Positions 1 through 47,384 of a DNA stretch of 64,000 nucleotides are shown here, one piece after another. The notes under the pieces were generated by a model. The model was not told the DNA's origin and made no database searches. It was given only the letters and a program-made list of their open reading frames with translations. This DNA comes from Arthrobacter sp. YN. GTDB lineage: Bacteria; Actinomycetota; Actinomycetes; Actinomycetales; Micrococcaceae. A program made the position numbers and the translations under genes. Position 1 is the stretch's first letter; every line of letters begins with the position of its first letter. The stretch lies in contig NZ_CP022436.1 of the NCBI RefSeq assembly GCF_002224285.1, positions 2,046,001 through 2,110,000 of the forward strand. The letters run 5' to 3'.

Positions 1-2007
1 CACTGAAATGCTGCGCAAGCACGGTGTTGTAGGCAAGTTCGTTGAGTTCTACGGCGAAGGCGTTGCCGCTGTGCCGTTGGCCAACCGCGCCACCATCGGC
101 AACATGAGCCCGGAATTCGGTTCCACGGCTGCCATGTTCCCCATCGACGACGTCACCTTGGAGTACCTGCGCCTGACCGGTCGTTCCGAAGCGAACGTCG
201 CCCTCGTGGAGGCGTACAGCAAGGAACAGGGCCTCTGGCACGATCCCTCCCGCGAACTGCGCTTCTCCGAGTTCCTCGAGCTGGACCTGTCCACGGTTGT
301 TCCTTCCATCTCCGGCCCCAAGCGTCCCCAGGACCGCATTGAGCTCACCGATGCCAAGGAGCAGTTCCGCAAGGACATCCACAACTACGTCGCCATCGAA
401 GACGGCAGCGTGGACGAGTCACTGGACGAATCGTTCCCGGCTTCGGATGCACCGTCCTTCACCCATGCTGATTCGCACACCACGGAGACGGAGCGCGTTT
501 ACTCCGCCGCCAATGGTGCCCACGGCCGCCCGTCGTCGCCGGTCAAGGTCAAGACTGCCGACGGCCGCGAGTTCGAGCTGGACCACGGTGCAGTGTCGAT
601 CGCGTCGATCACGTCCTGCACCAACACGTCCAATCCGTCCGTCATGCTTGCTGCTGCCCTTCTGGCACGCAACGCCGTGGACAAGGGCCTGACGTCCAAG
701 CCGTGGGTCAAGACCTCTGTTGCCCCGGCTCGAAGGTGGTCACTGACTACTACGAGAAGTCCGGCCTCACCCCGTACCTCGAGAAGCTTGGCTTCTACAT
801 TGTGGGTTACGGCTGCGCCACCTGCATCGGCAACTCCGGCCCGCTGGAGCCGGAAATCTCCGAGGCAATCCAGGCCAACGACCTCTCCGTCACTGCAGTC
901 CTCTCCGGTAACCGCAACTTCGAAGGCCGCATCAACCCGGACGTGAAGATGAACTACCTGGCCTCGCCGCCGTTGGTCATCGCTTACGCACTGGCTGGTT
1001 CCATGGACTTCGACTTCGAGACCGATGCCCTGGGCACCGACTCTGAAGGCAACGAGGTCTTCCTGAAGGACATCTGGCCGAACCCCACCGAGGTGCAGGA
1101 AGTCATTGACTCCTCCATCGACGAGGCAATGTTCGCCAAGGGTTACGAGGGCGTCTTCGACGGCGACGACCGTTGGAAGGCGCTGGATACCCCGGCCGGT
1201 GACACCTTCGCCTGGGCCGAGGATTCCACCTACGTGCGGAAGCCCCCATACTTCGAAGGCATGAAGGCCCAGCCGGATCCCGTCCAGGACATCTCCGGTG
1301 CCCGCGTGCTCCTGAAGCTTGGCGATTCCGTCACCACGGACCACATCTCCCCGGCCGGTTCGTTCAAGTCGGACACCCCGGCAGGCCAGTACCTCCTGGC
1401 CAACGGTGTGGAGCGCAAGGACTTCAACTCCTACGGTTCACGCCGTGGCAACCACGAAGTCATGATCCGTGGCACCTTCGCCAACATCCGCATCAAGAAC
1501 CAGCTCCTGGACGGCGTTGAGGGTGGCTTCACCCGCGACTTCAGCCAGGAAGGTGCACCGCAGGCCTACGTCTACGATGCCGCTCAGAACTACCAGGCTG
1601 CGGGAACACCGCTGGTGGTCCTGGCAGGCAAGGAATACGGCTCCGGTTCATCACGTGACTGGGCAGCAAAGGGCACAGCGCTCCTGGGCGTCAAGGCTGT
1701 CGTGGCTGAAAGCTACGAGCGCATCCACCGCTCCAACCTGATCGGCATGGGCGTTCTTCCGCTGCAGTACCCGGCCGGAGAGTCCGCAGCAACGCTGGGC
1801 CTGACCGGTACGGAAACCTTCGCAGTGGAGGGTGTGACCGAGCTGAACAACGGCACCACGCCGAAGACGCTGAAGGTCACAGCCACGGCTGAGGATGGCA
1901 CCAGCAAGTCCTTCGACGCCGTCCTGCGTATCGATACCCCGGGTGAAGCGGACTACTACCGCAACGGTGGCATCCTGCAGTACGTTCTGCGCCAAATCAC
2001 CGCATAG
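1..2007 (+). CDS. acnA: Aconitate hydratase, 5'-partial, interrupted by one frameshift
   Basis: This is the C-terminal two-thirds or more of aconitase, which converts citrate to isocitrate in the TCA cycle. Translation runs in from before the window in the frame of position 2. Visible motifs are [11 protein letters not shown] (iron-sulfur ligand Cys), [13 protein letters not shown] (the other two ligand Cys), [12 protein letters not shown], and the swivel-domain signature [16 protein letters not shown]. The reading frame changes near 727-730: the text reads ccccggctcgaag where one more G would give the conserved SVAPGSKVV and join the frames ending at 946 and beginning before 730. Both halves are otherwise fully conserved, so I infer a missing base in the sequence rather than a dead gene. 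A strong hairpin terminator follows at 2043. Confidence 0.93.
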
Positions 2008-2184: not shown

Positions 2185-4434
2185 TTGGGACTTTTGGAAG
2201 CCGTCAAGGATCCACAGGACCTGGCCAAACTGTCCGGCACCGAGCTGGAACAACTGGCCGGCGAAATCAGGGAATTCCTGATCACCAACGTAGCCGCGAC
2301 AGGTGGACACCTGGGCCCCAACCTTGGCGTTGTTGAACTCACCCTGGCCGTCCACCGGATTTTTGAGTCCCCGCGGGACAGTATTGTCTTCGATACCGGG
2401 CATCAGTCCTATGTGCACAAGCTGCTCACCGGCCGCCAGGATTTCAGCACCCTCCGCCAGCAGGGTGGGCTCTCCGGATATCCGGAGCGCGCTGAATCAG
2501 AGCATGACATTGTGGAGAGCTCCCATGCCTCGTCCTCCCTGTCATGGGCCGACGGCATTTCACGGGCCCGCCAGCTGACCGGCGAAGGTGACCGGTTCGT
2601 CGTCGCGGTGGTGGGCGATGGCGCACTCACCGGTGGCATGACGTGGGAAGCCATCAACAACATCGCCGCTGACAAGCGTCGCCGCGTGGTCATTGTGGTC
2701 AATGACAATGGCCGTTCATACGCACCCACCGTTGGCGGCTTTGCCGACTACCTCGCTTCGCTGCGCCCCACCATCGACTCCCTGCGTACCACCCCGGCGT
2801 ATGAGCGGATGTTGGATTGGTGGAAGAAGAAGCTCCAGAACGGCGGACCCGCCGGGCAGTTCACCTACAAGAGCCTGCACGCCATGAAGAAGGGCATCAA
2901 GGATTGGTGGGCTCCCCAGGGCATGTTCGAGGACCTGGGCATGAAGTACATCGGTCCGGTGGACGGACACAGTCTTCAGGCCATGGAGAATGCGCTGAAC
3001 ACCGCCAAGGCCTACGGAGGTCCGGTGATCGTGCACGCGATGACCGAGAAGGGCCACGGCTACGCTCCGGCCCTGGCCAACGAGGCAGACCAATTCCACG
3101 CCGTGGGAATCATCGATCCCGAAACGGGCGAGTCCACGGAAATGCCTGGCGCCAGGTCATGGACCTCGGTGTTCGCTGAGGAGATCGCGGACATTGCCGA
3201 TGAGCGCGAGGACATCGTGGGCATTACCGGCGCCATGCTGATTCCCGTAGGCCTGCACAAATTTGCCGAACGGCATCCGGAACGCGTCATTGACGTCGGC
3301 ATCGCTGAGCAGCATGCCCTCACGTCGGCTGCAGGCATGGCCTTCGGCGGCCTTCATCCCGTGGTGGCGGTGTATGCCACCTTCCTCAACCGGGCTTTTG
3401 ACCAGCTCCTCATGGATGTGGCCCTGCATAAGGCCGGCGTCACGATTGTCCTGGACCGGGCCGGCGTCACCGGCCCGGACGGCCCCAGCCACCACGGCAT
3501 GTGGGACATGGCCATGGTCCAGATCGTGCCGGGACTCCATTTGGCCGCACCCCGCGATGCCACCAGGCTCCGCGAAGAACTGCGGGAGGCTGTCGCAATT
3601 TCCGACGCCCCCACGGTGGTGCGGTTCTCCAAGGGCAGCGTCGGTTCCGAGGTTGAAGCGATTGAACGGCTTCACGACGGCGTTGACATCCTTGCCCGCC
3701 GACCCGAGGGTTCCACCGAAAACGATGTCCTCATTGTCAGCGTGGGTGCCATGTCTGAGCTCGCGCTGGATGTAGCCGGCCGACTGGGCGCCCAAGGCAT
3801 CAGTTCCACGGTGGTTGACCCGCGTTGGGTCCTTCCCGTCCGTAAATCGATCATTGCCCTCGCTGCCCGCCATCGCCTGGTCATCTGCATTGAAGACGGC
3901 GTGCGTGCCGGTGGCGTTGGCTCCCGCATCCGGCAGGAAATGCGCGCTGCGGGAGTGGATACGGCCCTCAACGAAGTCGGTTTGCCGGTGGAGTTCCTGG
4001 TCCACGGCTCCCGGAGCCAGGTCCTGGAGCGCGTTGGACTCACCGCCCAGAAGATAACGCACGACGTCGTAGCCCAGGTTTTGGGGACCAAGGTCCCCTT
4101 CGCGAGGCCCTCCCGGGCCAGGAACACCCCACCACCGGCAGTCTGCCCACGTTGTGATGGACAACCGCGGGCCGGGTGCACTGCAGCCCGGCGACCTCGT
4201 GGTGTCGAGGAACAGGAAATGGAACGGCAAAGCCCATTGGGTGGTGCCTGGCCGGTATCTTGGCGAGGACATTCACGGCTGGTGGATTTTCCAGGGCGCG
4301 GGGGAGTTCTGTTCCCGTCCCGGGGCAGCCTTCTACACAGCGTCGGACGCTGTCTTGCTGGTCCCGAGGACCGGCGAGTTCGTGGCGACGTTTTACGACG
4401 ATACGTACCCGGGCGACTTCCGGATCTACGTTGA
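2185..4434 (+). CDS. dxs: 1-deoxy-D-xylulose-5-phosphate synthase (3' end probably misread)
   Basis: DXS condenses pyruvate and glyceraldehyde 3-phosphate with thiamine diphosphate, the first step of the MEP isoprenoid pathway. The start is TTG at 2185, set by AAGGAGG at 2174-2180 with 4 nt spacing; the protein begins [10 protein letters not shown]. Visible are the substrate His in TGHQSYVHK, the ThDP/Mg motif GDGALTGG (Gly144) with VNDNGRSY, and the transketolase pyrimidine and C-terminal domains ([21 protein letters not shown]). At 749 aa it is about 100 residues longer than usual, and the tail after VPFARP is Arg/Gly/Pro-rich and overlaps the next gene. One extra C near 4104-4115 would end the protein at a TGA at 4155-4157, overlapping the next ATG as TGATG. 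I think that is the true end, giving about 657 aa. Confidence 0.95.
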
Positions 4435-5536: not shown

Positions 5537-6513
5537 ATGACTGAATACCGACGCCTTGGCCATTCCGGATTGACCGTCTCAGCCGTCGGGCTGGGCTGCA
5601 ACAATCTGGGGCGCGCCAATACACCCACCGAGTCCCAGGAGGGCACGGACGGCGTTGTCCATGCCGCGCTTGATGCGGGAGTGACCTTCTTTGACGTTGC
5701 CGATGTCTACGGACGCGAGCCGGGCCTGAGCGAGGCCATGCTGGGCAAGGCGCTCAAGGGCCGGCGTGACGACGTTGTCATTGGCACCAAGTTCGGCATG
5801 GACATGAAGGGCGTCAACGGGAACGATTTCGGCGCCCGTGGTTCGCGCCGCTACATCGTGAAGGCCGTCGAAGCATCGCTCCGCCGGCTGGATACCGAGT
5901 GGATCGATCTCTACCAGTTCCACACTCCTGATCCCCTGACACCCATCGAAGAGACGCTCGCAGCCTTGGATGATGTGGTGGCAAGTGGCAAGGTCCGCTA
6001 CATCGGACACTCGAATTTCGCGGGCTGGCAGATCGCCGAAGCGGAGTACGTAGGGCGCCAATTGGGGGTGCACGCTTCATCTCGACGCAGAATCATTACA
6101 ACCTGCTGGATCGCCGTGCTGAACTCGAAGTCCTGCCTGCCGCCGGGGCTTTGTCTTTGGGCGTGCTCCCGTATTTTCCGCTTGCCAACGGGCTGCTCAC
6201 CGGAAAGTACTCCGCCGGCAAAGCGCCGGAGGGTACCCGCCTGAGCCACACGCGCACCAACCTGGTGCATGACGCCGACTGGGATCAGCTGGGTCGCTTC
6301 GGCCAGTTCGCCAAGGAACGGGACATCAGTGAATTGCAGCTGGCCTTCTCCTGGCTTGCCGCGCAGCCCTGCGTCGGCAGCGTCATCGCGGGCGCCACCC
6401 GTCCGGAGCAGATCCGCCAGAACGCAGAGGCCGTTTGCTGGGTTCCCACACCGGAAGACCTGGCCGAACTGGATGAGATCTTCCCGCGGACGCCGAAGGT
6501 TGCACTCTTCTAG
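5537..6513 (+). CDS. Aldo/keto reductase, interrupted by one frameshift
   Basis: An NADPH-dependent oxidoreductase of the aldo-keto reductase barrel family. The first part (MTEYRRLGHSGLTVSAVGLG, FFDVADVYG with the catalytic Asp/Tyr, WIDLYQFHTPDPLTP) runs in one frame to about 6070. The rest (RFISTQNHYNLLDRRAEL, GVLPYFPLANGLLTGKYS, GSVIAGATRPEQI) continues from 6073 in the frame one base back and ends at 6513. One base is missing in or beside the G run at 6064-6070. With it restored the protein is about 325 aa, normal for the family, so I read this as a sequence error. It is convergent with the fad operon, with a hairpin between. Confidence 0.88.
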
Positions 6514-26433: not shown

Positions 26434-26786
26434 GCGGGGCTTGTTCGAAGAGCTTTTACGCAAATAGGATTACGGGCTGTCGTTTGCGACGGTCGTTGAT
26501 ATCAACCCGCGGACTGTTCCGGCCCACTGCTCAAGGACCTGGGCCTACGGCTCGATTTTGATGAACAGAACAGGCATATCGGGTGTTGTGGTTCAGCGCG
26601 GCCCGCACCAATGGACCCTTGATGCGATCCGCGTCACCAATCACAAATTCCTAAATGCTGGCTGGATTTTCCTTGGCAAAACACTTAGTTGCCAGATAGT
26701 CTCCTCTCGCTAGTCGAATTTGGGGGCTCGTACGGCGCTACTTGCTGCATCCCTCTGTCGAGTGTCTCGCTCCAGAAAGTGATGCT
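26434..26786. other. Intergenic region before the RHS locus
   Basis: No frame with coding character. It holds the leader of the DNRLRE/LamG gene. Scattered in-frame-looking fragments might be integrase remnants but none is recognisable. Confidence 0.4.
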
Positions 26787-29723
26787 GTGGGTCCTTCACC
26801 TGCGTTTCTTCGCCGTGCCTGCGTTCCGGCTCTAGCTCTGTCATTGTTGGTTTCGGGGCTGACAATTCCATCCGCGCTGGCCCTCCCTGGCCTGCAACCT
26901 GCTGAGACAGCCCCAGCTGTTACCCCTGGAGACACGGCCCCTGAACCGGGATCCGAGCAGGCGGCCCAGATGGAAGCCAAAGTATCGGGGGAGAAGATCG
27001 TGGTCGATTCAGCGACCACTCCTACTGATCTCACAGTTGCTAATCCCAACGGGACGTTCACACGGACGATGAACACCGCCCCGGTTCGTATGGAGACCAG
27101 CGCTGGCTGGGCGGACATATCCACTGACTTCGTGAAAACCGTTGAGGACGGCAAGACAATCATCAGGCCTGAGCAAGTGCCTGTTGACGTGACTATTGGC
27201 GCCGGCGGCTCCAACGAGATGGCGAAGATTGATGACAAAGAAGGCCACTCGATTGAACAATCCTGGCCGTTCGGGATGCTGCCGGTGCCGATCCTTGTGG
27301 AGAACACCGCAACGTATCAGCAGGTGCTACCCGGCGTGGACCTGGTGCAGATAGCTCATCAGGGTGGTGTGTCCCAAGTCTTGAAGATCGAGTCAGCTGC
27401 GGCTGCAAGGGATCCGCGTGTAGTCCAGATGCGGTTGTTCCTAGACGCCGACAACGCGACACTTTCGGCAACCCCAGAGGGAACAATTACTGCCACTGGT
27501 ACCGAGAGCGGGGAAGCTGAGCTGCACATGAGCGGGGGCCAATGGTGGGATTCTTCCCAGCCGGGCGCTTCTGCACTGGATCCGGGAACCCCGGGTGTGA
27601 CCAGACCCTTCAAGTTCACGCTCGGGGAGGAAGCTGGGAAACAAACTCAGGTCTTCGGGATGGACGAGATCCTGAACGCCACAGACGTGACCTACCCGAT
27701 CTATGTCGACCCTCCCTGGAATGTGCCACGCACCTCATATGTCATGGTGGACACTGCATACCCGAACACCTCGTACTGGAACGGTGCCTTCAGCACCGAG
27801 ACACTCAACGTTGGATACCTGCCTCCGAACTGGCCCACGGACGGAAACGCGCACTTGGCCCGTTCGTACTACCAGTTCGAAGGCAAAACCTTCGACGCCT
27901 CGGCGGATCTGATCAATGCCCGGTTCAGCGTCCTGGAGACGTGGTCGGCGTCCTGCACCCCCACAGGAGTGGCGTCGTGGCTGACCGGTGAAGTGGGAAC
28001 GGGCACGACATGGAACAACCAACCGGCATTGGGAGTGCGCACTGACCGCGGCAACGTCGCCAAGGGATGGAGTTCGGCATGCCCCCAAGGGATGGTCGGC
28101 TTCGACTTGTTGGCAGGCGAGAGCACCTTGCTAAATTCAGCGAAGTGGACGATCATGCTCGCTGCCGACAATGAACTCGACACCAGCGGTTTGGCTTGGA
28201 AACGCTTCTCCAACGCCGGACAGGTAACAGTCGACTACAACCGGAAGCCCTATGGACCTGCCATCCACTCGGTAGGAGAGGGGCGATGGGCAGGTGCGGC
28301 GTGGACGTCGAAGTACGTCACCCGCGACCGTACGCCGACGATGGCCGTCTTTGCCGGCGATATTGACCTGAGGCCGGTAAACGGTACGACGGGCGGACCC
28401 ATCACTGTCTTCTTCAGCGTCCGCCCAAAGGCTGGAGGTGGCAACGTCTTCTGGGGGAGTGTCCCGAACTTCAGTCAGGAATGGGGCATTGCGACCATCC
28501 AGTGGGGCTCAAGCTTCGGCGTCTTGGGCGACGGAGATTACATTCTCGATGCCAAAGGTGTGGACATGTTCAAGGCAGAGTCACCTCTTATGAGTTTTCC
28601 CTTCACCGTCGACACTGTCGGACCCGCGGTTCCAACGGTTAGTCCGCTGAGTGCCGAGTTGACCTCAACAACAACACCTGGCGAGTTCAAAGACCTCAGC
28701 CGGGCCCCGGGCGACTTCACCTACAAGTTCAGAATCAGCAACACCTACACATCATCACGTGTACCTAAGGCCAGCGGCTTCATCTATTCGGTGAGCGAAA
28801 CCGGGTCCGAGGCTCCTCCGGAAACCGTGACATGTCAGACACCGCCAGTGAAGGAATTCATCGTGCTCTGCCCGAGTTCTGACAGTGTCGACATCAATAT
28901 CGGAGCAGTCGCACCTACTTCATATCTCAATGTCTGGGCGTTCGATGAAGCAGGGAACATCGCGACCCTGGAACCCTACGTGGCAGGCGCTCCCAAGAAA
29001 ATCACCCTGAAGGTGGCTTCACCGACAACCGCAACGGGAACACCGATGCCGTTGACCCCCAGTGGCGGTGCCACGTGGGTCAAAATCAACGCTTGCGGCA
29101 AGGCTGTCGAGTCACACCGCATTCCCGAAGGACTTTGCGACTCGAATAACGCACCTGCCGTAGGGTACGAGGCCTACGCACTGGCCTTCAATGGCGGTAA
29201 GGCGGAGACGTCAGGTGCCGCCATCAACCCCAATGAGAGTTTCAGCATGGCAGCCTGGATCCGTCCCGACACTGCTTCGGGCAATATCCAGTCAGTGATC
29301 ACCCAGCTTGCCGGCACTGGCCCCGGTGCGGCGCTGGAGATTGGAGCAGATGGCTACGGCCGTCTCCAGACCTGGTATTCAGCGACGACCAGCGAGCATG
29401 TGAACAGCGACGATTACATTTCTGCCGGCGAGTGGAGCTACGTCACCGCCGTCTACGACAAGATCAACCGGCAACTTCGTCTGACGGCGAATAAAGACGG
29501 ACTGTTCGGCACATGGGTCGTCGCAGCTTCACAGCCGAATGTGGTGAGTGCAACGACCCAAAAGGTGATTCTGGGCCAGAACGCTGCCGGAGCACAGAAA
29601 TTCGCTGGGCAGATCTATCGCCCGATACTCACCAATGACGTGCTCACCAAAGCTCAGTTCTTCGCCATGGAAGCGGCTTTCAAGAGTGCCAGCGGAACGG
29701 AAGCAGGGGTTTTGGTCAAGTGA
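26787..29723 (+). CDS. Secreted DNRLRE/LamG-domain protein, partner of the RHS protein
   Basis: About 978 aa. I choose GTG 26787 (MGPSPAFLRRACVPALAL), which gives a normal signal peptide: positive start, hydrophobic core LALSLLVSGLTI and cleavage near ALALPG. The longer TTG start at 26742 puts 15 odd residues before it. A beta-rich region precedes a DNRLRE-like domain (TSYVMVDTAYPNTSYWNGAF, ARSYYQFEG, WNNQPALG) around residues 330-470. The last 170 residues form a LamG/concanavalin-like domain (FSMAAWIRPDTASGNIQSVI, GEWSYVTAVYDK, LGQNAAGAQKFAGQIY). Proteins of this type are commonly encoded directly before secreted RHS proteins in actinobacteria. The stop overlaps the RHS GTG as GTGA, so the pair is co-translated. 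Confidence 0.85.
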   Translation: MGPSPAFLRRACVPALALSLLVSGLTIPSALALPGLQPAETAPAVTPGDTAPEPGSEQAAQMEAKVSGEKIVVDSATTPTDLTVANPNGTFTRTMNTAPVRMETSAGWADISTDFVKTVEDGKTIIRPEQVPVDVTIGAGGSNEMAKIDDKEGHSIEQSWPFGMLPVPILVENTATYQQVLPGVDLVQIAHQGGVSQVLKIESAAAARDPRVVQMRLFLDADNATLSATPEGTITATGTESGEAELHMSGGQWWDSSQPGASALDPGTPGVTRPFKFTLGEEAGKQTQVFGMDEILNATDVTYPIYVDPPWNVPRTSYVMVDTAYPNTSYWNGAFSTETLNVGYLPPNWPTDGNAHLARSYYQFEGKTFDASADLINARFSVLETWSASCTPTGVASWLTGEVGTGTTWNNQPALGVRTDRGNVAKGWSSACPQGMVGFDLLAGESTLLNSAKWTIMLAADNELDTSGLAWKRFSNAGQVTVDYNRKPYGPAIHSVGEGRWAGAAWTSKYVTRDRTPTMAVFAGDIDLRPVNGTTGGPITVFFSVRPKAGGGNVFWGSVPNFSQEWGIATIQWGSSFGVLGDGDYILDAKGVDMFKAESPLMSFPFTVDTVGPAVPTVSPLSAELTSTTTPGEFKDLSRAPGDFTYKFRISNTYTSSRVPKASGFIYSVSETGSEAPPETVTCQTPPVKEFIVLCPSSDSVDINIGAVAPTSYLNVWAFDEAGNIATLEPYVAGAPKKITLKVASPTTATGTPMPLTPSGGATWVKINACGKAVESHRIPEGLCDSNNAPAVGYEAYALAFNGGKAETSGAAINPNESFSMAAWIRPDTASGNIQSVITQLAGTGPGAALEIGADGYGRLQTWYSATTSEHVNSDDYISAGEWSYVTAVYDKINRQLRLTANKDGLFGTWVVAASQPNVVSATTQKVILGQNAAGAQKFAGQIYRPILTNDVLTKAQFFAMEAAFKSASGTEAGVLVK

Positions 29724-32700
29724 AAATTTACAGGTCAGGAATCCAGTCCATGCGTTCGCTTCTTACTGCGGCACTCGCTGTAACGCTCGTAGCAACCGGT
29801 GCCGCCTTTACCGTTCTCCCGGAACCGGGTGCAGTCTCGCAAGTGGCGGGCGATTCCAACATCACTCCGCTCGACCCGGTGCCTGTTGAGCAATGGCAAG
29901 AGCCAGCAGCAGACCCCATCGCCCCTCAGGGAATCGACGTCGCGGTGGGCGCGGCCTCAGACACTGTTCTGGGAGATCAGGCGCCATTGGCGAAGACGGC
30001 GGGCGTCCGCACGATCGTGCCTATGTCCGGCACCAACTCCGGTCCTGTTCCCTCCAATCCCGGTGGCGCGGGCAACTTTATGGCTCTGCCTGGCCTGGGA
30101 TCCGGTTCTTGGGGAACTACCGGCCAGACCGGTGGGTTCACCTGGAACTATCCCTTCCCGATCAGGGAAGCCCCTGCTGGAAGCACGCCGGCGCTGAGCC
30201 TGTCTTACGACTCCACCCGCCTCGATGGCCTAACCAGCGCCACAAACAACCAGGCTTCCGTGGTTGGTGACGGCTGGGCTCTGGGCGGTGCCGGAACCAT
30301 CCGCCAGAAATTTGGATCCTGTAAGGACCAGCTCCCGGCTGGTACACAGACCTGGGATCTCTGCGGAAATCCTGGAGGCCAGGAATTCACTATCTCTTTC
30401 GGCAACCGCTCCGGTCTGATCATCAAAGATGCCAACGGCAAATTCCACCTGCAGGCAGACGACAACACCCGTCTGGAGTTCTTGCAGGACACGAACACCG
30501 CAAACGGGACCAGGTACGGCGACTATTGGAAAGTCACTGATCCTGAGGGAACCGAGTACTTCTTCGGCCTGAATAAACTCCCGGGCTGGACCAGCGGTAA
30601 GGCAACCACCAACTCAACCGACTATGTTCCTGTCCGTGCTGCTACATCGACTCAGCCTTGCAACGACATCGGAACAGCGCTCTGTCAGCAGGCCTACGCC
30701 TGGAACCTGGATTACGTCGTGGACGTTCACGGCAACTCCCAGGCGTTCTACTACACCCAGGACCTGAACTACTACGCTTCAGCAGCTGGCACAGGCCCTC
30801 GTCACATCTACGTCCGGGCCAGCCGACTCGCACGGGTTGACTATGGCATGCGGGAGGGGACCGAACTCACAGCCAAGGCCCCAATGCAGGTTCATCTTGG
30901 CTACACGGGCCGTTGTGAAGGCGGAACGGTTTGCACGAACGGCACCGAACACGACGTTCCGACCAACTTCACCTGCAACACCACGACCTGTGCCATCCAG
31001 GCACCGACCTTCTACACGTACTACCGCCTGCAGACGGTGATCTCGCAGACACTCGTTGGGGCCAGCTACGGCAACGCCGACATCTGGACTCTCGGCCACT
31101 GGATGCCCGATCCAGAGGACGGAACCAAACCTTCTCTCTGGCTGCGATCTGTCACGCACCAAGGTGCCGACACAACCTCCACCGGTTTCGGCGGCTGGAT
31201 CACTGATCCAGCTACTATCTTTGACGGTCAGGGACGGTACAACCGTGTCTGGGACGTCCGGACCGGACAGGCGCCCATGAACCGGATCCGGCTCATGACG
31301 ATTATCAACAGCACGGGCGCGCGGACAACGGTAAATTACATGCCCGCGGACCCCGGCTGTACCTATGAGTACATCGCCACGGTCGTTCCTGAGACCAACA
31401 CCAAACGTTGCTTCCCGCAATGGTGGCAGCCTGTTGATCCGGTTCCGCAAACTGAACGACGGGACCTGTTCAACATCTATCCCGTCCAGAGCGTCAGCAC
31501 GACTCCCAGCCCGGGCTATGACGGCAGTGCTGCGGTTTATCAGGAATACAAGTACGAAGACGCCCCGGTGTGGAAATACGTCGACGCCAAGTACGACTCC
31601 AGCACCAGCGGTTCCAAGAAAACTTGGTCTGTGTTCGGCGGTTGGTCCCAGGTTAGGAAAACAACAGGCAACGATCCGGGCGGTAGTAACCCGTACACCA
31701 TCACCACCTACCTGCGCGGCATCAACGGCACACCATCCAATGCCTCCGGAGGTGTGCGGGCAGCAACGCTGACGGCCTCAGATGGCATCACCCAAATAGC
31801 AGATCAGCCGTGGTTGGCCGGTCGTGTGTTGGAACAGCGTAGCTTTGCCGGCACCGGAACGAACTACTTGAGTAGCACGATCACCTTGCCCTGGTCCTCA
31901 TTGAACCCCACAGCAAAAGCTCCAGTGTCCCTGGATTCCGTGGAAGCTCACTACACCGGAACCTCTGCAACCAAGACCAGAACCGCGTCCAGTGTCTCCG
32001 GTGGTTGGCGCACGACGTACATTGCCAACACGTTCGATGCGTTGGGCCGCATTACTGCAGTCGCTGACCATGGCGACTACACAGCCACGACAGCCGACGA
32101 TATTTGCACCACCACCAGCTACGCCGACAACGCCACAGCAAACATACTGTCCCTTCCGGCTGTCAGCGCCACATTCTCTGCAGCTTGCAATGCCGGAGCC
32201 CCTAACGGACCCCTGCTGCGCTACACAAGGACCCTGTACGACACCTCCACTTCGGCGGTCCCCGGATCCCCAGGTTACGTTGCCCCGACGAAGGGCGACA
32301 AAACCCGCACTGACGCTGCTACGGCAACATCGGGCGTCGTAGTCACAGGGTGGCAGACCGGGCCCACCATGACATATGACTCCTTAGGTCGCGCAGCCAC
32401 AGCCACTGACAACACCACCGGTGCGCCGCGAACTACGACGACCACGTACTCGCCTGGCACAGGCGCGCCGACGACAGTGACTGTCTCCAATGCGCTTCAG
32501 TGGAAGACGGTGACGACCCTGGATGTCATACGCGGAAACACCCTGAAGACCCAGGACCAGAACCTGCATGAAACCAGTGCCGCTTACGATCAGTCGGGCC
32601 GCGAGATCAAGTCATGGGATGCACGGCGGCCACAGGCGGCTGGCACCCCAACCACGGTCACCAGCTACGGGATCTCCAACACCAGTCCTTCGTGGGTGAA

Positions 32701-35431
32701 GAAGACGACCGCGACCGGCATAGATAGCTTCGCCATCTACGACGGCATGGGACGAGTCCGTCAAACCCAGGCGAAGTCCCCGGGTGGGGGCTCTATAGTT
32801 ACCGACACGATGTACAACTCGGCCGGGGCAAAGAACCTCGAACGCCACGACTACTACGTCCCTTCCAACCCCACCGGGGACTTGATTACTCCCACCATTG
32901 CCGTACCGGCCTCCACTGAGTACACCTACGACACGGCCGGCCGTGTCGCGACCGCCAAGCGGCTCGGCAACGACAACATCGAACAGTGGACGACTGGCTA
33001 CAGTTACGTCGGCATAGACACCACCACAACGAAACTCACGGCTCCCGGGTGGAGCGGCTCCCCTGAGACGACCGTGTTGAATGCCCGAGGAAAGGTCGAT
33101 AGCAAAACGTCCTATCACGGCACTACCGCTACTGGCAGCGCCGACAAGACCACTTTTGTCTATGACGCCTTCGGCCAACGCACAGGCATGGGTGACGGTC
33201 AGAACCTTTGGACATGGAAATACGACGCTGCAGGACGGGAAACATCCAGCACGGACCCGGACACAGGCACAGGTGCAACTACGTATGATGCTTCAGGCCG
33301 GGTCGCGACTCGTAGCGATGCTCTGCAGACAGTGACCGGCTACGTGTACGACGTCTTGGACCGCGTCACGAAGCAAACCGTCACCGCGCAAGGGGGGACC
33401 GCCAAGACCCTGATCACGTCGACATATGACAGCGATACTGCCAACCTGGGCCAGCTCACTTCCACGACGCGCAACAATGGCGTGAACTTCGACCAGCCCG
33501 TCACCACTACGTATAGCGGCTTCGATCTCGCATATACGCCCGGTACAGTCACGACCACACTTCCGGCGACGCTGACGGGTTTCGGCGGGTCCCACTCGTT
33601 TACTACGACTACTACCTACACTGGTCAGATCAAAGCAGCGGGCACACCCACTATCGCCGGTCTCCCGGCAGAGACCGTCGCCTACGGATATACGGCGTTT
33701 GATACTCCCTCCAGTATCCAAGCTAACTTGAACATCTACGCCGGAAACTCCCAGTATGACCATCTCGGCAAGCTTGTTTCCTACGAGCAAATGGACAACG
33801 CTGAATCCACAGGGACAAACACCACCGGCAAGAATGTCGTTAGCTTCAACTGGAGCCCCAGCACAGGGCGACTGATCGACAGCCAAGCATCCAACACCCT
33901 CCCTGACAAGGATTCATCGGATCTCGGTACCACTCGCTATAAGTACGACCCGGCAGGACGGATCACCTCACGGGAGCAGGCCTACACCTCACGGACCTCC
34001 TCACCGTCGGACTACCAGTGCTACAGCTACGATCACGCCGACCGTGTCAAAGCTGCATGGACACCGTCCGTTATTGCAGGTTGTTCCACCGCGCCTGCTT
34101 CTACGGCGGGGAGCGTGACAGGGCTGACCGGCCCGGCACCGTATGCGCAGACGTACACGTATACAGCTGCAGGTGACAGGGCCCAGGTCAAGCGGTTCAG
34201 CGCCACTGGGGCCCTCGCGGTCACTGAGACCTACGCTTACCCAGCACCTGGAACAACGGGACCTCACCGGCTGCAGTCAGTAACCTCAGTTGCAGGTTCG
34301 ACCACATCTACACAGTCCTTTACCTGGGATGCAGCCGGCAAAATGACAGGTCGGGCGGGACAAACGCTGACGTACAGTTTGGACGGGAGCTTGAGCACGA
34401 CCACGGGTGCCAGCGACGTTCCGGCCAACCCCAACCCCGGAGCAACAGCCGGAACGCCGCCAGCCCCTTCTACAGCGGTGGCTGACGATGCGGCAACCCG
34501 CTTCTACGACGCCTCAGGGAACCTTGTCGGCATCAAGGACGGCACCGGCACAACCGTGACGTTGGGCAGCATTACTGCCCACAACAGTATTGGTGGCACG
34601 AAAACAGCAACCAAGACCTACAGCTTCGCCGGGAAGATCGTCGCGCAGCGCACCAGCAACAGCACGGTCACCGGCACGAAGCTGGCGTTCATCATCGGGG
34701 ACAGAGTTAATACCGCCCAGACCATGACGCTGCCGAACACCGGCACTGGGCCCACAACGGTCATCACGCGTCGTACCGACCCCTTGGGTCTTGCCCGGGG
34801 TGCTAATGGAACTGCTACAGCCAATGGCAGCTTCGCGACAGCCCCCAGCACTACCGCCGGAACCGGATCAAACGCGGCAAGTTCAACTGGGTTCAGCGCA
34901 GTCAACGGCTACATCGCAGGGCTTGACGACACTGTTAGTTCGCTCACCCACCTTGGTGCCCGAGAGCTTGACCCAGTCCTTGGTGTCTTCACAGCACCGG
35001 ACCCAATCCTGGACATCAGCAAACAAGAAGGCTTCACTCCGTATACATACGCCTTTGGCAACACCATAAATACTTCGGATCCCACAGGCCTGAAGCCCAC
35101 TTGTGACTGCGACGAGGACCGTGGGGGGACATATTTGAAGGCTGAATACGTTTCGGGCCCTAAGTTCTACGGTGTCGAGCAGGAGCAGCGCGCTGCCGCC
35201 CCCGCGACGCCCGGCACGTATGTACCTACATTTGCGGACAGGCTCCGATGGGCCTATAAGAAAAGTTACTCGGCCCACGCTGGTGAGATTCGTCCTTATA
35301 AAGCGACCGAAGATATGAGTCTTAAGCAAAAAGTGTGGTTCCTGAACCACTTGAGCCACTATGGTGTTCCCGACGACGAAGACATGTCCTGGGACGAGGC
35401 ATTCGCGGGACCACTCGGGATAGTCTTATGA
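29720..35431 (+). CDS. Secreted RHS/YD-repeat polymorphic toxin protein
   Basis: 1903 aa, starting GTG 29720 by coupling to the upstream stop; ATG 29750 (MRSLLTAALAVTLVA) is an alternative and either start gives a signal peptide. Residues about 90-560 resemble the SpvB/TcdB-like N-terminal part of RHS shells (GFTWNYPFPIREAPAG, SLSYDSTRLDG). From about 880 onward many YD repeats follow (YDSLGRAATA, YDTAGRVAT, YDAAGRETSS, YDPAGRITSR). The RHS-associated core is ARELDPVLGVFTAPDPI then NTSDPTGL (end near residue 1791). The last 112 residues have a different, AT-richer composition and no known fold. Ending in FAGPLGIVL, the frame closes on TGA overlapping an ATG. A missing G in 35417-35419 would fuse it to the toxin domain downstream. 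Confidence 0.9.
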   Translation: MKIYRSGIQSMRSLLTAALAVTLVATGAAFTVLPEPGAVSQVAGDSNITPLDPVPVEQWQEPAADPIAPQGIDVAVGAASDTVLGDQAPLAKTAGVRTIVPMSGTNSGPVPSNPGGAGNFMALPGLGSGSWGTTGQTGGFTWNYPFPIREAPAGSTPALSLSYDSTRLDGLTSATNNQASVVGDGWALGGAGTIRQKFGSCKDQLPAGTQTWDLCGNPGGQEFTISFGNRSGLIIKDANGKFHLQADDNTRLEFLQDTNTANGTRYGDYWKVTDPEGTEYFFGLNKLPGWTSGKATTNSTDYVPVRAATSTQPCNDIGTALCQQAYAWNLDYVVDVHGNSQAFYYTQDLNYYASAAGTGPRHIYVRASRLARVDYGMREGTELTAKAPMQVHLGYTGRCEGGTVCTNGTEHDVPTNFTCNTTTCAIQAPTFYTYYRLQTVISQTLVGASYGNADIWTLGHWMPDPEDGTKPSLWLRSVTHQGADTTSTGFGGWITDPATIFDGQGRYNRVWDVRTGQAPMNRIRLMTIINSTGARTTVNYMPADPGCTYEYIATVVPETNTKRCFPQWWQPVDPVPQTERRDLFNIYPVQSVSTTPSPGYDGSAAVYQEYKYEDAPVWKYVDAKYDSSTSGSKKTWSVFGGWSQVRKTTGNDPGGSNPYTITTYLRGINGTPSNASGGVRAATLTASDGITQIADQPWLAGRVLEQRSFAGTGTNYLSSTITLPWSSLNPTAKAPVSLDSVEAHYTGTSATKTRTASSVSGGWRTTYIANTFDALGRITAVADHGDYTATTADDICTTTSYADNATANILSLPAVSATFSAACNAGAPNGPLLRYTRTLYDTSTSAVPGSPGYVAPTKGDKTRTDAATATSGVVVTGWQTGPTMTYDSLGRAATATDNTTGAPRTTTTTYSPGTGAPTTVTVSNALQWKTVTTLDVIRGNTLKTQDQNLHETSAAYDQSGREIKSWDARRPQAAGTPTTVTSYGISNTSPSWVKKTTATGIDSFAIYDGMGRVRQTQAKSPGGGSIVTDTMYNSAGAKNLERHDYYVPSNPTGDLITPTIAVPASTEYTYDTAGRVATAKRLGNDNIEQWTTGYSYVGIDTTTTKLTAPGWSGSPETTVLNARGKVDSKTSYHGTTATGSADKTTFVYDAFGQRTGMGDGQNLWTWKYDAAGRETSSTDPDTGTGATTYDASGRVATRSDALQTVTGYVYDVLDRVTKQTVTAQGGTAKTLITSTYDSDTANLGQLTSTTRNNGVNFDQPVTTTYSGFDLAYTPGTVTTTLPATLTGFGGSHSFTTTTTYTGQIKAAGTPTIAGLPAETVAYGYTAFDTPSSIQANLNIYAGNSQYDHLGKLVSYEQMDNAESTGTNTTGKNVVSFNWSPSTGRLIDSQASNTLPDKDSSDLGTTRYKYDPAGRITSREQAYTSRTSSPSDYQCYSYDHADRVKAAWTPSVIAGCSTAPASTAGSVTGLTGPAPYAQTYTYTAAGDRAQVKRFSATGALAVTETYAYPAPGTTGPHRLQSVTSVAGSTTSTQSFTWDAAGKMTGRAGQTLTYSLDGSLSTTTGASDVPANPNPGATAGTPPAPSTAVADDAATRFYDASGNLVGIKDGTGTTVTLGSITAHNSIGGTKTATKTYSFAGKIVAQRTSNSTVTGTKLAFIIGDRVNTAQTMTLPNTGTGPTTVITRRTDPLGLARGANGTATANGSFATAPSTTAGTGSNAASSTGFSAVNGYIAGLDDTVSSLTHLGARELDPVLGVFTAPDPILDISKQEGFTPYTYAFGNTINTSDPTGLKPTCDCDEDRGGTYLKAEYVSGPKFYGVEQEQRAAAPATPGTYVPTFADRLRWAYKKSYSAHAGEIRPYKATEDMSLKQKVWFLNHLSHYGVPDDEDMSWDEAFAGPLGIVL

Positions 35432-35757
35432 TGGCGTTCGGGCGAGGCGGAGCCGGAAAGGGAGGAAAGGTTGGCATAGGTAAGCCTGGAAATACAGGAG
35501 TCTTTATGCCGACGGGTAACCTGTCGAGAGGTTCTACTGGACGTACTGCCCCTAATGACTTAAAAGAACAACTTGCTATGGGATCTGCGATGTCAAACCC
35601 TAGTGCTGGGATTGCTCTGCCGAACGTGAAAATGGCAGACACTCGATGGTCCATGACAGAAGGCTGGGTGAAAATGCGGCAGAATGTCAATAATGTGGAG
35701 ATACACTATGTGCAGAATACAAAGACCGGCATGGTCGATGACTTTAAGTTTAAGTAA
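35428..35757 (+). CDS. Toxin-tip domain of the RHS protein in a separate frame
   Basis: 109 aa starting at the ATG overlapping the RHS stop. A Gly-rich linker (FGRGGAGKGGKVGIGKPG) leads to a C-terminal module: APNDLKEQLAM, DTRW, GWVKMRQNVNNVEIHYVQN, TKTGMVDDFKFK. The module resembles the end domain of many RHS and filamentous-haemagglutinin toxins, which I believe is annotated as a type-17 polymorphic toxin (predicted nuclease); that name is from memory. Composition is AT-richer than the RHS body, as expected for an exchanged tip. Either it is the true C-terminus of the RHS protein cut off by a missing base, or a separately translated, displaced tip. Confidence 0.75.
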   Translation: MMAFGRGGAGKGGKVGIGKPGNTGVFMPTGNLSRGSTGRTAPNDLKEQLAMGSAMSNPSAGIALPNVKMADTRWSMTEGWVKMRQNVNNVEIHYVQNTKTGMVDDFKFK

Positions 35758-35765
35758 ACAAGCGA

Positions 35766-36299
35766 TTGGTGTACCAATTGAAAATTCCCGGCAGTATGAC
35801 TTCTCCATCCGAGCAACGTCTGTACCTAGCCTTACTGTTATCCGAAAATGAACTGGACCAGTGGGACAATGTCGACATGCTGGCGGCAGAAGCAATTACG
35901 GAGGGAATTGACACACCCGCCGTGTTAGCGCTGGCGTCTCAGTCGTCTCCCATAGATGCTTTCATGCTCAAGGACCTGCTCAATGATCTGGCGGAAGAAC
36001 GGGAGTGGCCTTCACGAGAGGTGAGTGAATCAATTCTGTTGATTGCGATGTTCCGCGCACGAGATGTACTCGATAAGGGCATGGATCCAATTGCCGCTTG
36101 TGACTTTATTTATCAGCAGTGCTATCTAAAACTCGAAAACCAAGGCGATATGACGGGAATGTCGAAGCTGCAGTCATTCGTGGAGGTCTCAATCTCGTGG
36201 GATGAGAACATTGTTAGTACTAAACGGAGTGATTCGCTTGCATTGAGCGAAGAACTTCGGGGTGAAGCCCTTGCGGCCTTTCGCGCTTTGCTAGCCTAG
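35766..36299 (+). CDS. Candidate immunity protein for the RHS toxin
   Basis: Up to 177 aa from TTG 35766 (GTG 35769 and ATG 35796, MTSPSEQRLYLALLL, are alternatives). A soluble, acidic, helical protein (LDQWDNVDMLAAEAITEG, KDLLNDLAEEREWPSREV) without membrane segments. It starts 8 bases after the toxin stop and shares its AT-rich composition. In polymorphic-toxin loci the gene directly behind the toxin tip is the cognate immunity gene, and that is the basis of this call. I do not recognise the family. Confidence 0.65.
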   Translation: MVYQLKIPGSMTSPSEQRLYLALLLSENELDQWDNVDMLAAEAITEGIDTPAVLALASQSSPIDAFMLKDLLNDLAEEREWPSREVSESILLIAMFRARDVLDKGMDPIAACDFIYQQCYLKLENQGDMTGMSKLQSFVEVSISWDENIVSTKRSDSLALSEELRGEALAAFRALLA

Positions 36300-36450
36300 G
36301 CAGCGGAGCCCGGGGAGGCGGGTGCGCTTTCTGATTCTCCGTGCTCCGAAACTGGGACGATGTGAAGTTACGGCTACCATCAACAGCCTCCCAGAGAATT
36401 AATGCAGTCGATGCCATAAAAAGTGAAGCTCAAGCAGGCGGTGCAGAAGT

Positions 36451-36936
36451 ATGTCGGCTAGCGGAAGCCTGTGGAACTGGTGGCGCTCCAGGAGCGCGAA
36501 TTGGAGGCTGGTCCTCCTGGGTGGACTTCTGGGCACGATTGGCGCTGTCGGGCTCAGCGCGTTGAACAACATCGGCAGATTCAGTGTCGGTTACGTTCCT
36601 TGGATCCTGATGAACCTTTTCCTGTTCGAGATTCCCGCCATGGTGATTCTGGGCCTGGTGGTTTCAAGTGGCGTCATTGTCGCCCTTCTGCCACTTCCTA
36701 GGTCCACGCACGCAATAGCCCGAGCACTGGTCGCTGGCATAGTGGCAACAGTGGGCTCTGGCGCGCTGATATTCCTGTACTTCACACTATTTCCGCTGAC
36801 ATACAATCCGGTGTTGGCGGCTGCCTACACTGGCCCTGTTGTTGGGATTGCGTTCGCGATCGTTGTGTATCGATGGGGCAGAGGTGCCTCCAAGGCAGCG
36901 AAGACTGGGTCACGAAGGCGAGAAGAGGGAGGTTGA
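36451..36936 (+). CDS. Membrane protein, unknown
   Basis: 161 aa with four hydrophobic helices (LVLLGGLLGTIGAVGLSAL, ILMNLFLFEIPAMVILGLVV, ALVAGIVATVGSGALIFLYF, AAYTGPVVGIAFAIVVYRW) and a basic C-terminal tail. Start ATG 36451 without a strong ribosome site. Family not recognised. It sits 13 bases ahead of a lipoprotein gene on the same strand. Confidence 0.6.
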   Translation: MSASGSLWNWWRSRSANWRLVLLGGLLGTIGAVGLSALNNIGRFSVGYVPWILMNLFLFEIPAMVILGLVVSSGVIVALLPLPRSTHAIARALVAGIVATVGSGALIFLYFTLFPLTYNPVLAAAYTGPVVGIAFAIVVYRWGRGASKAAKTGSRRREEGG

Positions 36937-39560: not shown

Positions 39561-39905
39561 TCATGGGGCAGTGAAAAAGAATGAACTTGCTTCCTTGGTC
39601 GCTGAGAACCTCACTGACACTGCCCCAGGGGCGGGTACCGTCCAGACGTCATCAGTGCCAAGCAGTTCGAATGCCATGTCGTCGGGTATTTTGCTCATCT
39701 CTCCGTAGGGCTCCTGGCAGTAATAAAGCCCGACAAGTTCCATGGACAGCAGATCAGCGACGATCTTTGCTGCTTCGATCTTCAGGTCCTCGTCGCTGGC
39801 TGAAGGTCTGATCGCTCTCAGTTCCCACGGGCACTCCCAGAGTCCGGAGTAGTCTTCAACTGCTTGCCAAAGAAGGATGCGCTGGGCTGGGGACAGGTCA
39901 TTCAT
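39561..39905 (-). CDS. Small unknown protein, immunity-like
   Basis: 114 aa from ATG 39905 (MNDLSPAQRILLWQAVED), preceded by AAGGAAG. The motif YSGLWECPWELRAI and the helical layout recall small actinobacterial proteins often found beside toxin loci. Soluble. It is followed across by convergent DUF1508. Function inferred only from context. Confidence 0.55.
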   Translation of the reverse strand: MNDLSPAQRILLWQAVEDYSGLWECPWELRAIRPSASDEDLKIEAAKIVADLLSMELVGLYYCQEPYGEMSKIPDDMAFELLGTDDVWTVPAPGAVSVRFSATKEASSFFFTAP

Positions 39906-46809: not shown

Positions 46810-47384
46810 ATGCTTATCGGCTACGCCCGTGTTTCCACCAACACACAAGATCTGACTGCCCAGCGGGATGCTCTCGCGGCTGCCGGCGTGAACCCTGACG
46901 CGATCTATGTCGATCACGGATTAACAGGCACCCAACGCGAACGGCCCGGCCTTGGCAAGGCCCTCGCCGCCTGTCGCAACGGCGACACCCTCGTGATGAC
47001 CAAACTAGATCGACTCGCCCGGTCATTGCCTGACGCCAGGGACATCGCTGATGAGCTCACCCGTAAAGGCGTCGCTTTGAACTTGAGGGGGCAGCGTCTA
47101 CGACCCGCACGATCCCGTGGGGAAGCTACTGTTCAACGTCCTGGGCATGGTGGCCGAATTCGAAGCCGACCTCATCCGCGCCAGAACCCCGCGAAGGAAT
47201 GGCAGTAGCCAAGGCCAGAGGCCGGCTGAGGGGAAAGCAACCGAAACTCTCCAAGGCCCAGGAAACCCACCTCGTCAGTCTGCATCGGGATGGGGCACAC
47301 ACCACTACCGAAATCGCTGAGCTCTTCGGCGTCGCCCGTTCCACCGTCTACCGTGCGATTCAGCGCGCCGCGTCATCCTCGTGA
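46810..47384 (+). pseudogene. Serine recombinase (resolvase/invertase) broken by two +1 frameshifts
   Basis: The N-terminal catalytic domain reads MLIGYARVSTNTQDLTAQRD with the nucleophile Ser, then DTLVMTKLDRLARSLPDA. After LTRKGVALNL the frame is shifted by one extra base near 47086, continues as FNVLGMVAEFEADLIRAR, and shifts again by one extra base in the C run at 47190-47194. It then finishes with MAVAKARGRLRGKQPKL and the helix-turn-helix TTTEIAELFGVARSTVYRAI. Joined it would be 190 aa, normal for the family. Two insertions in one accessory gene look like real decay. A trace of mobile DNA in the island. Confidence 0.88.

What the first reader, a model, noticed from the sequence alone, without database searches (positions are those of the whole stretch)
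35090..35760. RHS toxin tip detached from its shell by one frame
The RHS protein ends ...FAGPLGIVL at a TGA that overlaps an ATG opening a 109-aa frame with a nuclease-toxin-like module. Inserting a single G in 35417-35419 makes one continuous protein (FAGPLGDSLMMAFGRGG...). So either the shell and toxin are really one about 2010-aa protein and the break is a sequence error, or the tip is separately translated, which would be an unusual split or phase-off version of an RHS toxin.
Basis: partly seen in the sequence, partly recalled or inferred. Interest (0 to 1): 0.75.

Follow-up and report, generated by a model that had tools for sequence, protein, structure and literature searches.

The report
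Frame break splits one RHS toxin
A bacterial weapon protein looks cut into a shell and a separate toxin tip, but this genome assembly shows similar one-base breaks in many ordinary genes, so the cut is most likely a sequence error in an otherwise normal toxin gene.

Summary
The break is in the sequence as described: the RHS shell (29720-35431, 1903 aa) stops at a TGA overlapping an ATG that opens a 109-aa frame. Residues 32-109 of that frame are a real toxin-type module with relatives at 58 genome-contig loci, most of them in longer carrier frames. It has no Pfam, NCBIfam or credible PDB sequence match.

The split is probably not biology. A same-genus relative, G122, has the same shell and linker (91.8% DNA identity) in one open frame across this point, ending in a different tip. 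The window's tip frame begins with that linker, so its start is shell sequence. Many conserved genes here are broken too: 20 of 150 genes aligned to G122 have a lasting frame change, 16 of 21 events being one base shorter here. The only acnA found is split in this window.

Verdict: an RHS polymorphic toxin locus with an exchanged tip, interrupted most likely by an assembly indel. A real mutation is the main rival; a functional split is unlikely. The uncatalogued tip family is the more interesting part.

The parts
26742..29723 (+). Companion secreted-type protein, 993 aa, LamG-like domain; overlaps the start of the shell gene
   Evidence: PF13385 E 3.6e-13; the part from 26978 is conserved with G122
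29720..35431 (+). RHS shell ORF, 1903 aa, with the pretoxin linker at its end
   Evidence: PF05593 E 8.1e-10; TIGR03696 Rhs core at residues 1730-1791, E 3.5e-9; 91.8% DNA identity to G122 from 26978 to 35462
35400..35431 (+). Place of the frame break; shell stop 35429-35431 overlaps ATG 35428-35430
   Evidence: G122 is open here
35428..35757 (+). Tip ORF, 109 aa; about the first dozen residues are linker shared with G122, residues 32-109 the toxin module
35463..36417 (+). Exchanged toxin plus downstream-gene cassette: no DNA homology to G122 here
   Evidence: homology ends at 35462 and resumes at 36418-36593
35766..36299 (+). 177-aa ORF, candidate immunity gene by position only
   Evidence: no family or PDB match, no relative found
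39576..39905 (-). Likely orphan immunity gene: 67% identity over 111 residues to the 115-aa gene that follows G122's different tip
   Evidence: E 9.7e-50

Best explanation
One gene, not two. The locus is an RHS polymorphic toxin: a secreted YD-repeat shell, a linker, and an exchangeable C-terminal toxin module followed by a gene placed as immunity. In this assembly the gene is interrupted by a one-base frame difference in the linker, most likely a sequencing or assembly indel, because the same assembly breaks many conserved genes in the same way. How the intact system most likely works (inferred): the tip is carried by the shell, released after the core (DPxGL region) and acts inside competing bacteria, perhaps as a small RNase of the RelE-like (BECR) fold class, while the 177-aa protein protects the producer. 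Shown: open frame in a relative, homology of the tip module, cassette exchange, frame breaks across the assembly. Inferred: error rather than mutation, delivery, enzyme activity, immunity.
For: G122 has the same shell and linker in one open frame (2048 aa from stop to stop) that crosses the break. Over 8,491 aligned columns the break is the only frame-changing difference that is not compensated within about 100 bases. Breaks in conserved genes of the same window: acnA in two frames that continue one profile (273-467, then 464-885 of 888), the only acnA found; aldo/keto reductase in two frames; dxs with an out-of-frame end. Across 400 kb: 20 of 150 aligned genes have a lasting frame change, 21 events in 181,875 bp, 16 one base shorter and 5 one base longer in G000, 13 of 21 in runs of 4 or more identical bases; a protein-level count gives 19 of 163 matched genes. 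At that rate about 0.7 events are expected in this 6.0-kb gene (my arithmetic).
Against: No raw reads could be seen, so this place itself is not proven wrong. The genome is one contig of 5.06 Mb rated 100% complete. Reverse counts, with G000 genes as reference, also show breaks in G122: 9 of 165 genes and 17 of 154; 4 of those 9 are genes also broken in the forward list, but others look like real breaks in G122, so part of the forward count may be real variation. No null for run lengths was computed. Only one close relative was found.
Confidence: 0.85

Rival explanations
1. The break is a real, recent frameshift mutation: this strain's shell has lost its tip, leaving a shell without toxin and a toxin module without delivery.
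For: RHS loci are known to fragment and recombine (PMC3967940, passages). In the same genome one of two near-identical RHS copies is split into two frames. Reverse counts show some breaks in G122 as well.
Against: The break rate is high in conserved metabolic genes of this assembly, including its only acnA. The tip keeps all seven invariant family positions and an open frame (the window is itself one of the 43 sequences), so there is no sign of decay.
Confidence: 0.11
2. A functional split: the tip is translated on its own, by coupling at the ATGA overlap, and joins the shell without a covalent bond.
For: The ATGA overlap is a typical coupling arrangement (general knowledge), the tip ORF is intact, and tips in short frames exist elsewhere (19 of 60 places).
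Against: The tip ORF starts in linker sequence that is inside the shell frame in G122; the ATG at 35428 is CTG there. In the listing (same-strand frames of 120 aa or more ending within 600 bases) I saw none of the 19 short cases with a shell whose stop overlaps the tip start. No promoter-like site was found.
Confidence: 0.03
3. The 109-aa frame is a chance open frame and not a toxin module.
For: No Pfam, NCBIfam or PADLOC family and no credible PDB sequence match. No true homologue in the genus (G000 and one chance hit among 206 genomes) or in 395 family genomes other than G000.
Against: 58 encoded relatives in many phyla, identity up to 69%, most in longer carrier frames.
Confidence: 0.01

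Closest known systems
RHS polymorphic toxins with exchangeable C-terminal tips and linked immunity genes (described for Rhs and WapA in PMC3967940, passages)
   Same: YD repeats and Rhs core, DPxGL after the core, variable tip after a conserved shell, small gene right after the tip
   Different: In the assembly the tip is in another frame; the tip family and the 177-aa gene have no curated family
Orphan rhs-CT/rhsI modules of Salmonella (PMC3967940, passages)
   Same: A tip coding sequence, with a small gene behind it, detached from an RHS reading frame
   Different: Those lie downstream of a main rhs gene that has its own tip; here the tip directly continues the only shell at the locus, with the shared linker
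C-termini of DUF637/haemagglutinin (CdiA-like) proteins of Providencia and Arsenophonus
   Same: The same toxin module, 57.7-65.4% identity over residues 32-109
   Different: Carrier is a haemagglutinin-type protein, not RHS; the gene after the Arsenophonus tip is unrelated to the window's 177-aa protein
RelE/ParE/HigB toxins and BECR-fold RNase toxins

Membership tests
RHS polymorphic toxin | YD/RHS repeats and Rhs-associated core in a large protein | tested here: met
   PF05593 E 8.1e-10; TIGR01643 E 9.9e-10 and TIGR03696 E 3.5e-9
RHS polymorphic toxin | Variable C-terminal tip after a conserved shell | tested here: met
   G122 has the same shell and linker and an unrelated tip
RHS polymorphic toxin | Tip in the same reading frame as the shell | tested here: inconclusive
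   Not so in the assembly; so in G122 with its own tip; assembly rich in frame breaks
RHS polymorphic toxin | Cognate immunity gene after the tip | tested here: inconclusive
   177-aa ORF 9 bases after the tip, by position only; no homologue found
RHS polymorphic toxin | Toxicity to other bacteria | not testable with these tools
   Needs an assay
Orphan rhs-CT module | Lies downstream of a main rhs gene that has its own tip | tested here: not met
   The tip ORF overlaps the end of the only shell here; G122's tip has no match in the window
BECR-fold RNase toxin | BECR fold | tested here: inconclusive
BECR-fold RNase toxin | RNase activity | not testable with these tools
   Needs an assay
Assembly indel artefact | Close relative open in one frame at the same place | tested here: met
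   G122
Assembly indel artefact | Excess of frame breaks in conserved genes of the same assembly | tested here: met
   20 of 150, 19 of 163, acnA and aldo/keto reductase in this window
Assembly indel artefact | Raw reads disagree with the assembled bases | not testable with these tools
   No reads held

The most novel reading that the evidence does not exclude
The break is real in the living strain and the toxin tip is made as its own protein by coupled translation at the ATGA overlap, so that shell and toxin come together without a covalent bond: a two-part RHS toxin.
Probability: 0.03. Interest if true: 0.65.

Novelty: new member of a known kind. Interest (0 to 1): 0.2.

Why it matters
It shows how an apparent split toxin can come from an assembly rich in frame breaks, and gives a simple test: compare the neighbouring housekeeping genes with a relative first. 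The tip module itself is worth naming: a short toxin-type domain found in many phyla on RHS, haemagglutinin-like and other carriers, with no Pfam, NCBIfam or solved-structure entry found here. If real and split, it would be a two-part RHS toxin, which would be surprising.

Tried and rejected
Tip in phage records: no match. Tip in viral contigs: two scans, none confirmed by tblastn. The G150 hit (E 8e-4) was set aside as chance: it lies antisense to a 508-aa frame (that this frame is a glucosidase-like enzyme is recalled from its sequence). The shell region has no close plasmid relative: 2 records with a DNA match, 68.9% over 54% of the query at best, and 1 record by protein. The first synteny attempt failed: 5 and 7 genes matched at 65% or more; the dxs anchor gave the right stretch. 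Base composition by frame around the break was not informative. One search also counted antisense shadow frames (25 of 167 genes forward, 18 of 168 reverse) and was replaced by the filtered counts. Programmed frameshifting: I saw no classical slippery heptamer by eye; it was not modelled. PDB sequence hits of the tip (E 0.019 and 0.29; E 0.9) and Pfam hits of single family members (best E 0.012) were set aside as chance. Two low-identity genus matches span most of the shell end (G100 29%, G056 31%) and were not followed. Foldseek in the viral library was not run.

Papers: 'DDFKFK' 0 papers; polymorphic toxin + Rhs + frameshift + sequencing error, 1 paper, listing only (PMC4316617); Rhs + Arthrobacter + toxin, 6 papers, listing only, none on this by title; MafB/orphan toxins, BECR and orphan Rhs, listings. 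Passages read: PMC12007338, PMC3967940, PMC12700104. These searches do not show that the tip family is undescribed: they cover open-licence papers only and one motif string.

Full report
Observation. The shell has RHS/YD repeats and an Rhs core at residues 1730-1791, and reads DPTGL just after the core. A 177-aa ORF follows at 35766-36299.

The tip is a real module. It has no Pfam or NCBIfam family and no PADLOC family at E<=1, and a Pfam scan of 43 aligned members gave only scattered weak hits (best E 0.012). Yet tblastn finds residues 32-109 at the C-terminus of DUF637 proteins of Providencia (1 record) and Arsenophonus (4 records) and residues 36-109, unannotated, in 2 Neisseria gonorrhoeae records (7 records in all). 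A genome scan gave 239 pattern matches, of which 58 encode a relative. I examined 60 places: those 58 plus L011 and L012, which look like second copies of L029 and L059. Of the 60, 39 lie in open frames of at least 250 aa, 2 are cut by a contig edge and 19 are in short frames; some of the short ones, such as L071, break inside the tip itself. A simple motif test flagged RHS in 4 (L030, L045, L046, L048) and more look RHS-like by eye. Many tips are followed at once by a small ORF, of several kinds that look unrelated by eye. The window's 177-aa protein matched none of the 293 downstream ORFs collected, and among 394 class genomes only G000 itself matched, so its immunity role rests on position alone. 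The seven positions invariant in 43 sequences, the window's among them, are D71, G79, W80, K82, H93, Y94 and D105.

The tip is rare near home: among 206 genus genomes G000 and one chance hit; among 395 family genomes only G000; among 394 class genomes G000 and two others.

What happens at the break. Of 206 genus genomes, 39 match the shell's last 149 residues at E<=0.001, G000 included. Only G122 matches closely over nearly all of it (97%, residues 1-147), in a frame open for 2048 aa; two others span most of it at 29% and 31%. G122 runs on past the window's stop, through a linker that the window's tip frame also encodes, into an unrelated tip followed by a 115-aa gene. Over 8,491 aligned columns, from 26978 in the companion gene to 35462, every other length difference is a multiple of three or has an opposite partner within about 100 bases; the one at the break is not compensated. 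DNA homology stops at 35462 and resumes at 36418, so the toxin cassette has been exchanged. A gene 67% identical over 111 residues to G122's 115-aa protein lies at 39576-39905 on the minus strand, a likely orphan immunity gene. Where the window has the tip's ATG (35428), G122 has CTG.

Error or mutation. In this same window acnA lies in two frames that continue one profile (in G122 it is one 935-aa frame). The only other aconitase-family match in the genome is a full-length match at 3.18 Mb in a 527-aa frame, which I take for LeuC. An aldo/keto reductase is split (one 325-aa frame in G122). The dxs ORF is 749 aa, while G122's match ends at residue 657 in a 660-aa frame and the last part of the window's ORF matches another frame of G122. 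Against the syntenic G122 stretch, 20 of 150 genes aligned at 80% or more over at least 80% of their length have a lasting frame change in G000: 21 events in 181,875 bp, 16 one base shorter and 5 one base longer in G000, 13 of 21 in runs of four or more identical bases. ORFs that failed the filters were dropped, and that call did not print their number; no null for run length was computed. A protein-level count gives 19 of 163 matched genes, out of 291 query ORFs. The reverse counts are 9 of 165 matched genes and 17 of 154. Four of those 9 are genes that also appear in the forward list and a fifth is dxs, but others look like real breaks in G122, so G122 is not free of them. Two RHS loci of G000 align at 99.1% over 5,136 columns with four single-base gaps, all in the copy at 0.88 Mb, whose frame is split in two; two further, less alike pieces of that comparison (83.7% and 90.5%) have gaps in both directions. 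The pattern fits the account that long-read assembly errors are mostly short indels at homopolymers and fragment genes (PMC12007338, passages). I do not know how this genome was sequenced. At 21 events per 181,875 bp about 0.7 are expected in this 6.0-kb gene (my arithmetic), so a break here needs no special explanation.

Conclusion. This is an RHS toxin locus with an exchanged tip. The frame break is most likely an assembly indel (0.85), possibly a real mutation (0.11), and unlikely to be a functional split (0.03).

Noticed in passing
window 1-2007: acnA (aconitate hydratase) is split into two overlapping frames that continue one profile; the only acnA found in the genome.
   Followed up: yes
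window 5537-6513: Aldo/keto reductase split into two frames.
   Followed up: yes
window 2185-4434: dxs ORF is 749 aa where G122's frame is 660 aa; its last part matches another frame of G122, so the frame is lost near the end.
   Followed up: partly
window 39576-39905 (minus): Likely orphan immunity gene related to the one that follows G122's different RHS tip (67%).
   Followed up: partly
L142 and L143 (G000 at 0.87-0.89 and 1.61-1.63 Mb): Two further RHS loci, 99.1% alike over 5,136 columns; four single-base gaps, all in the 0.88-Mb copy, which is split into 1026- and 955-aa frames against one of 1943 aa.
   Followed up: partly
window about 19758 to beyond 64000: Between two genes shared with G122, G000 has about 49 kb against about 17 kb in G122, and G122's copy of the RHS locus lies elsewhere (1.19 Mb): the locus seems to sit in a variable island; a resolvase lies at 46810-47208.
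   Followed up: no
L046 and L051: Nearly the same Streptomyces toxin end lies in one 2270-aa frame in L046 but in a 240-aa frame with other frames overlapping upstream in L051, a metagenome-assembled genome.
   Followed up: no
L079: G026 has a 48% match to residues 94-145 of the 149-residue shell end in a 137-aa open frame: the pretoxin segment in another context.
   Followed up: no
L015-L072, downstream of the tips: The tip family is followed by several kinds of small ORF that look unrelated by eye, one kind (about 130-150 aa) in many loci: possibly several immunity families for one toxin family.
   Followed up: partly
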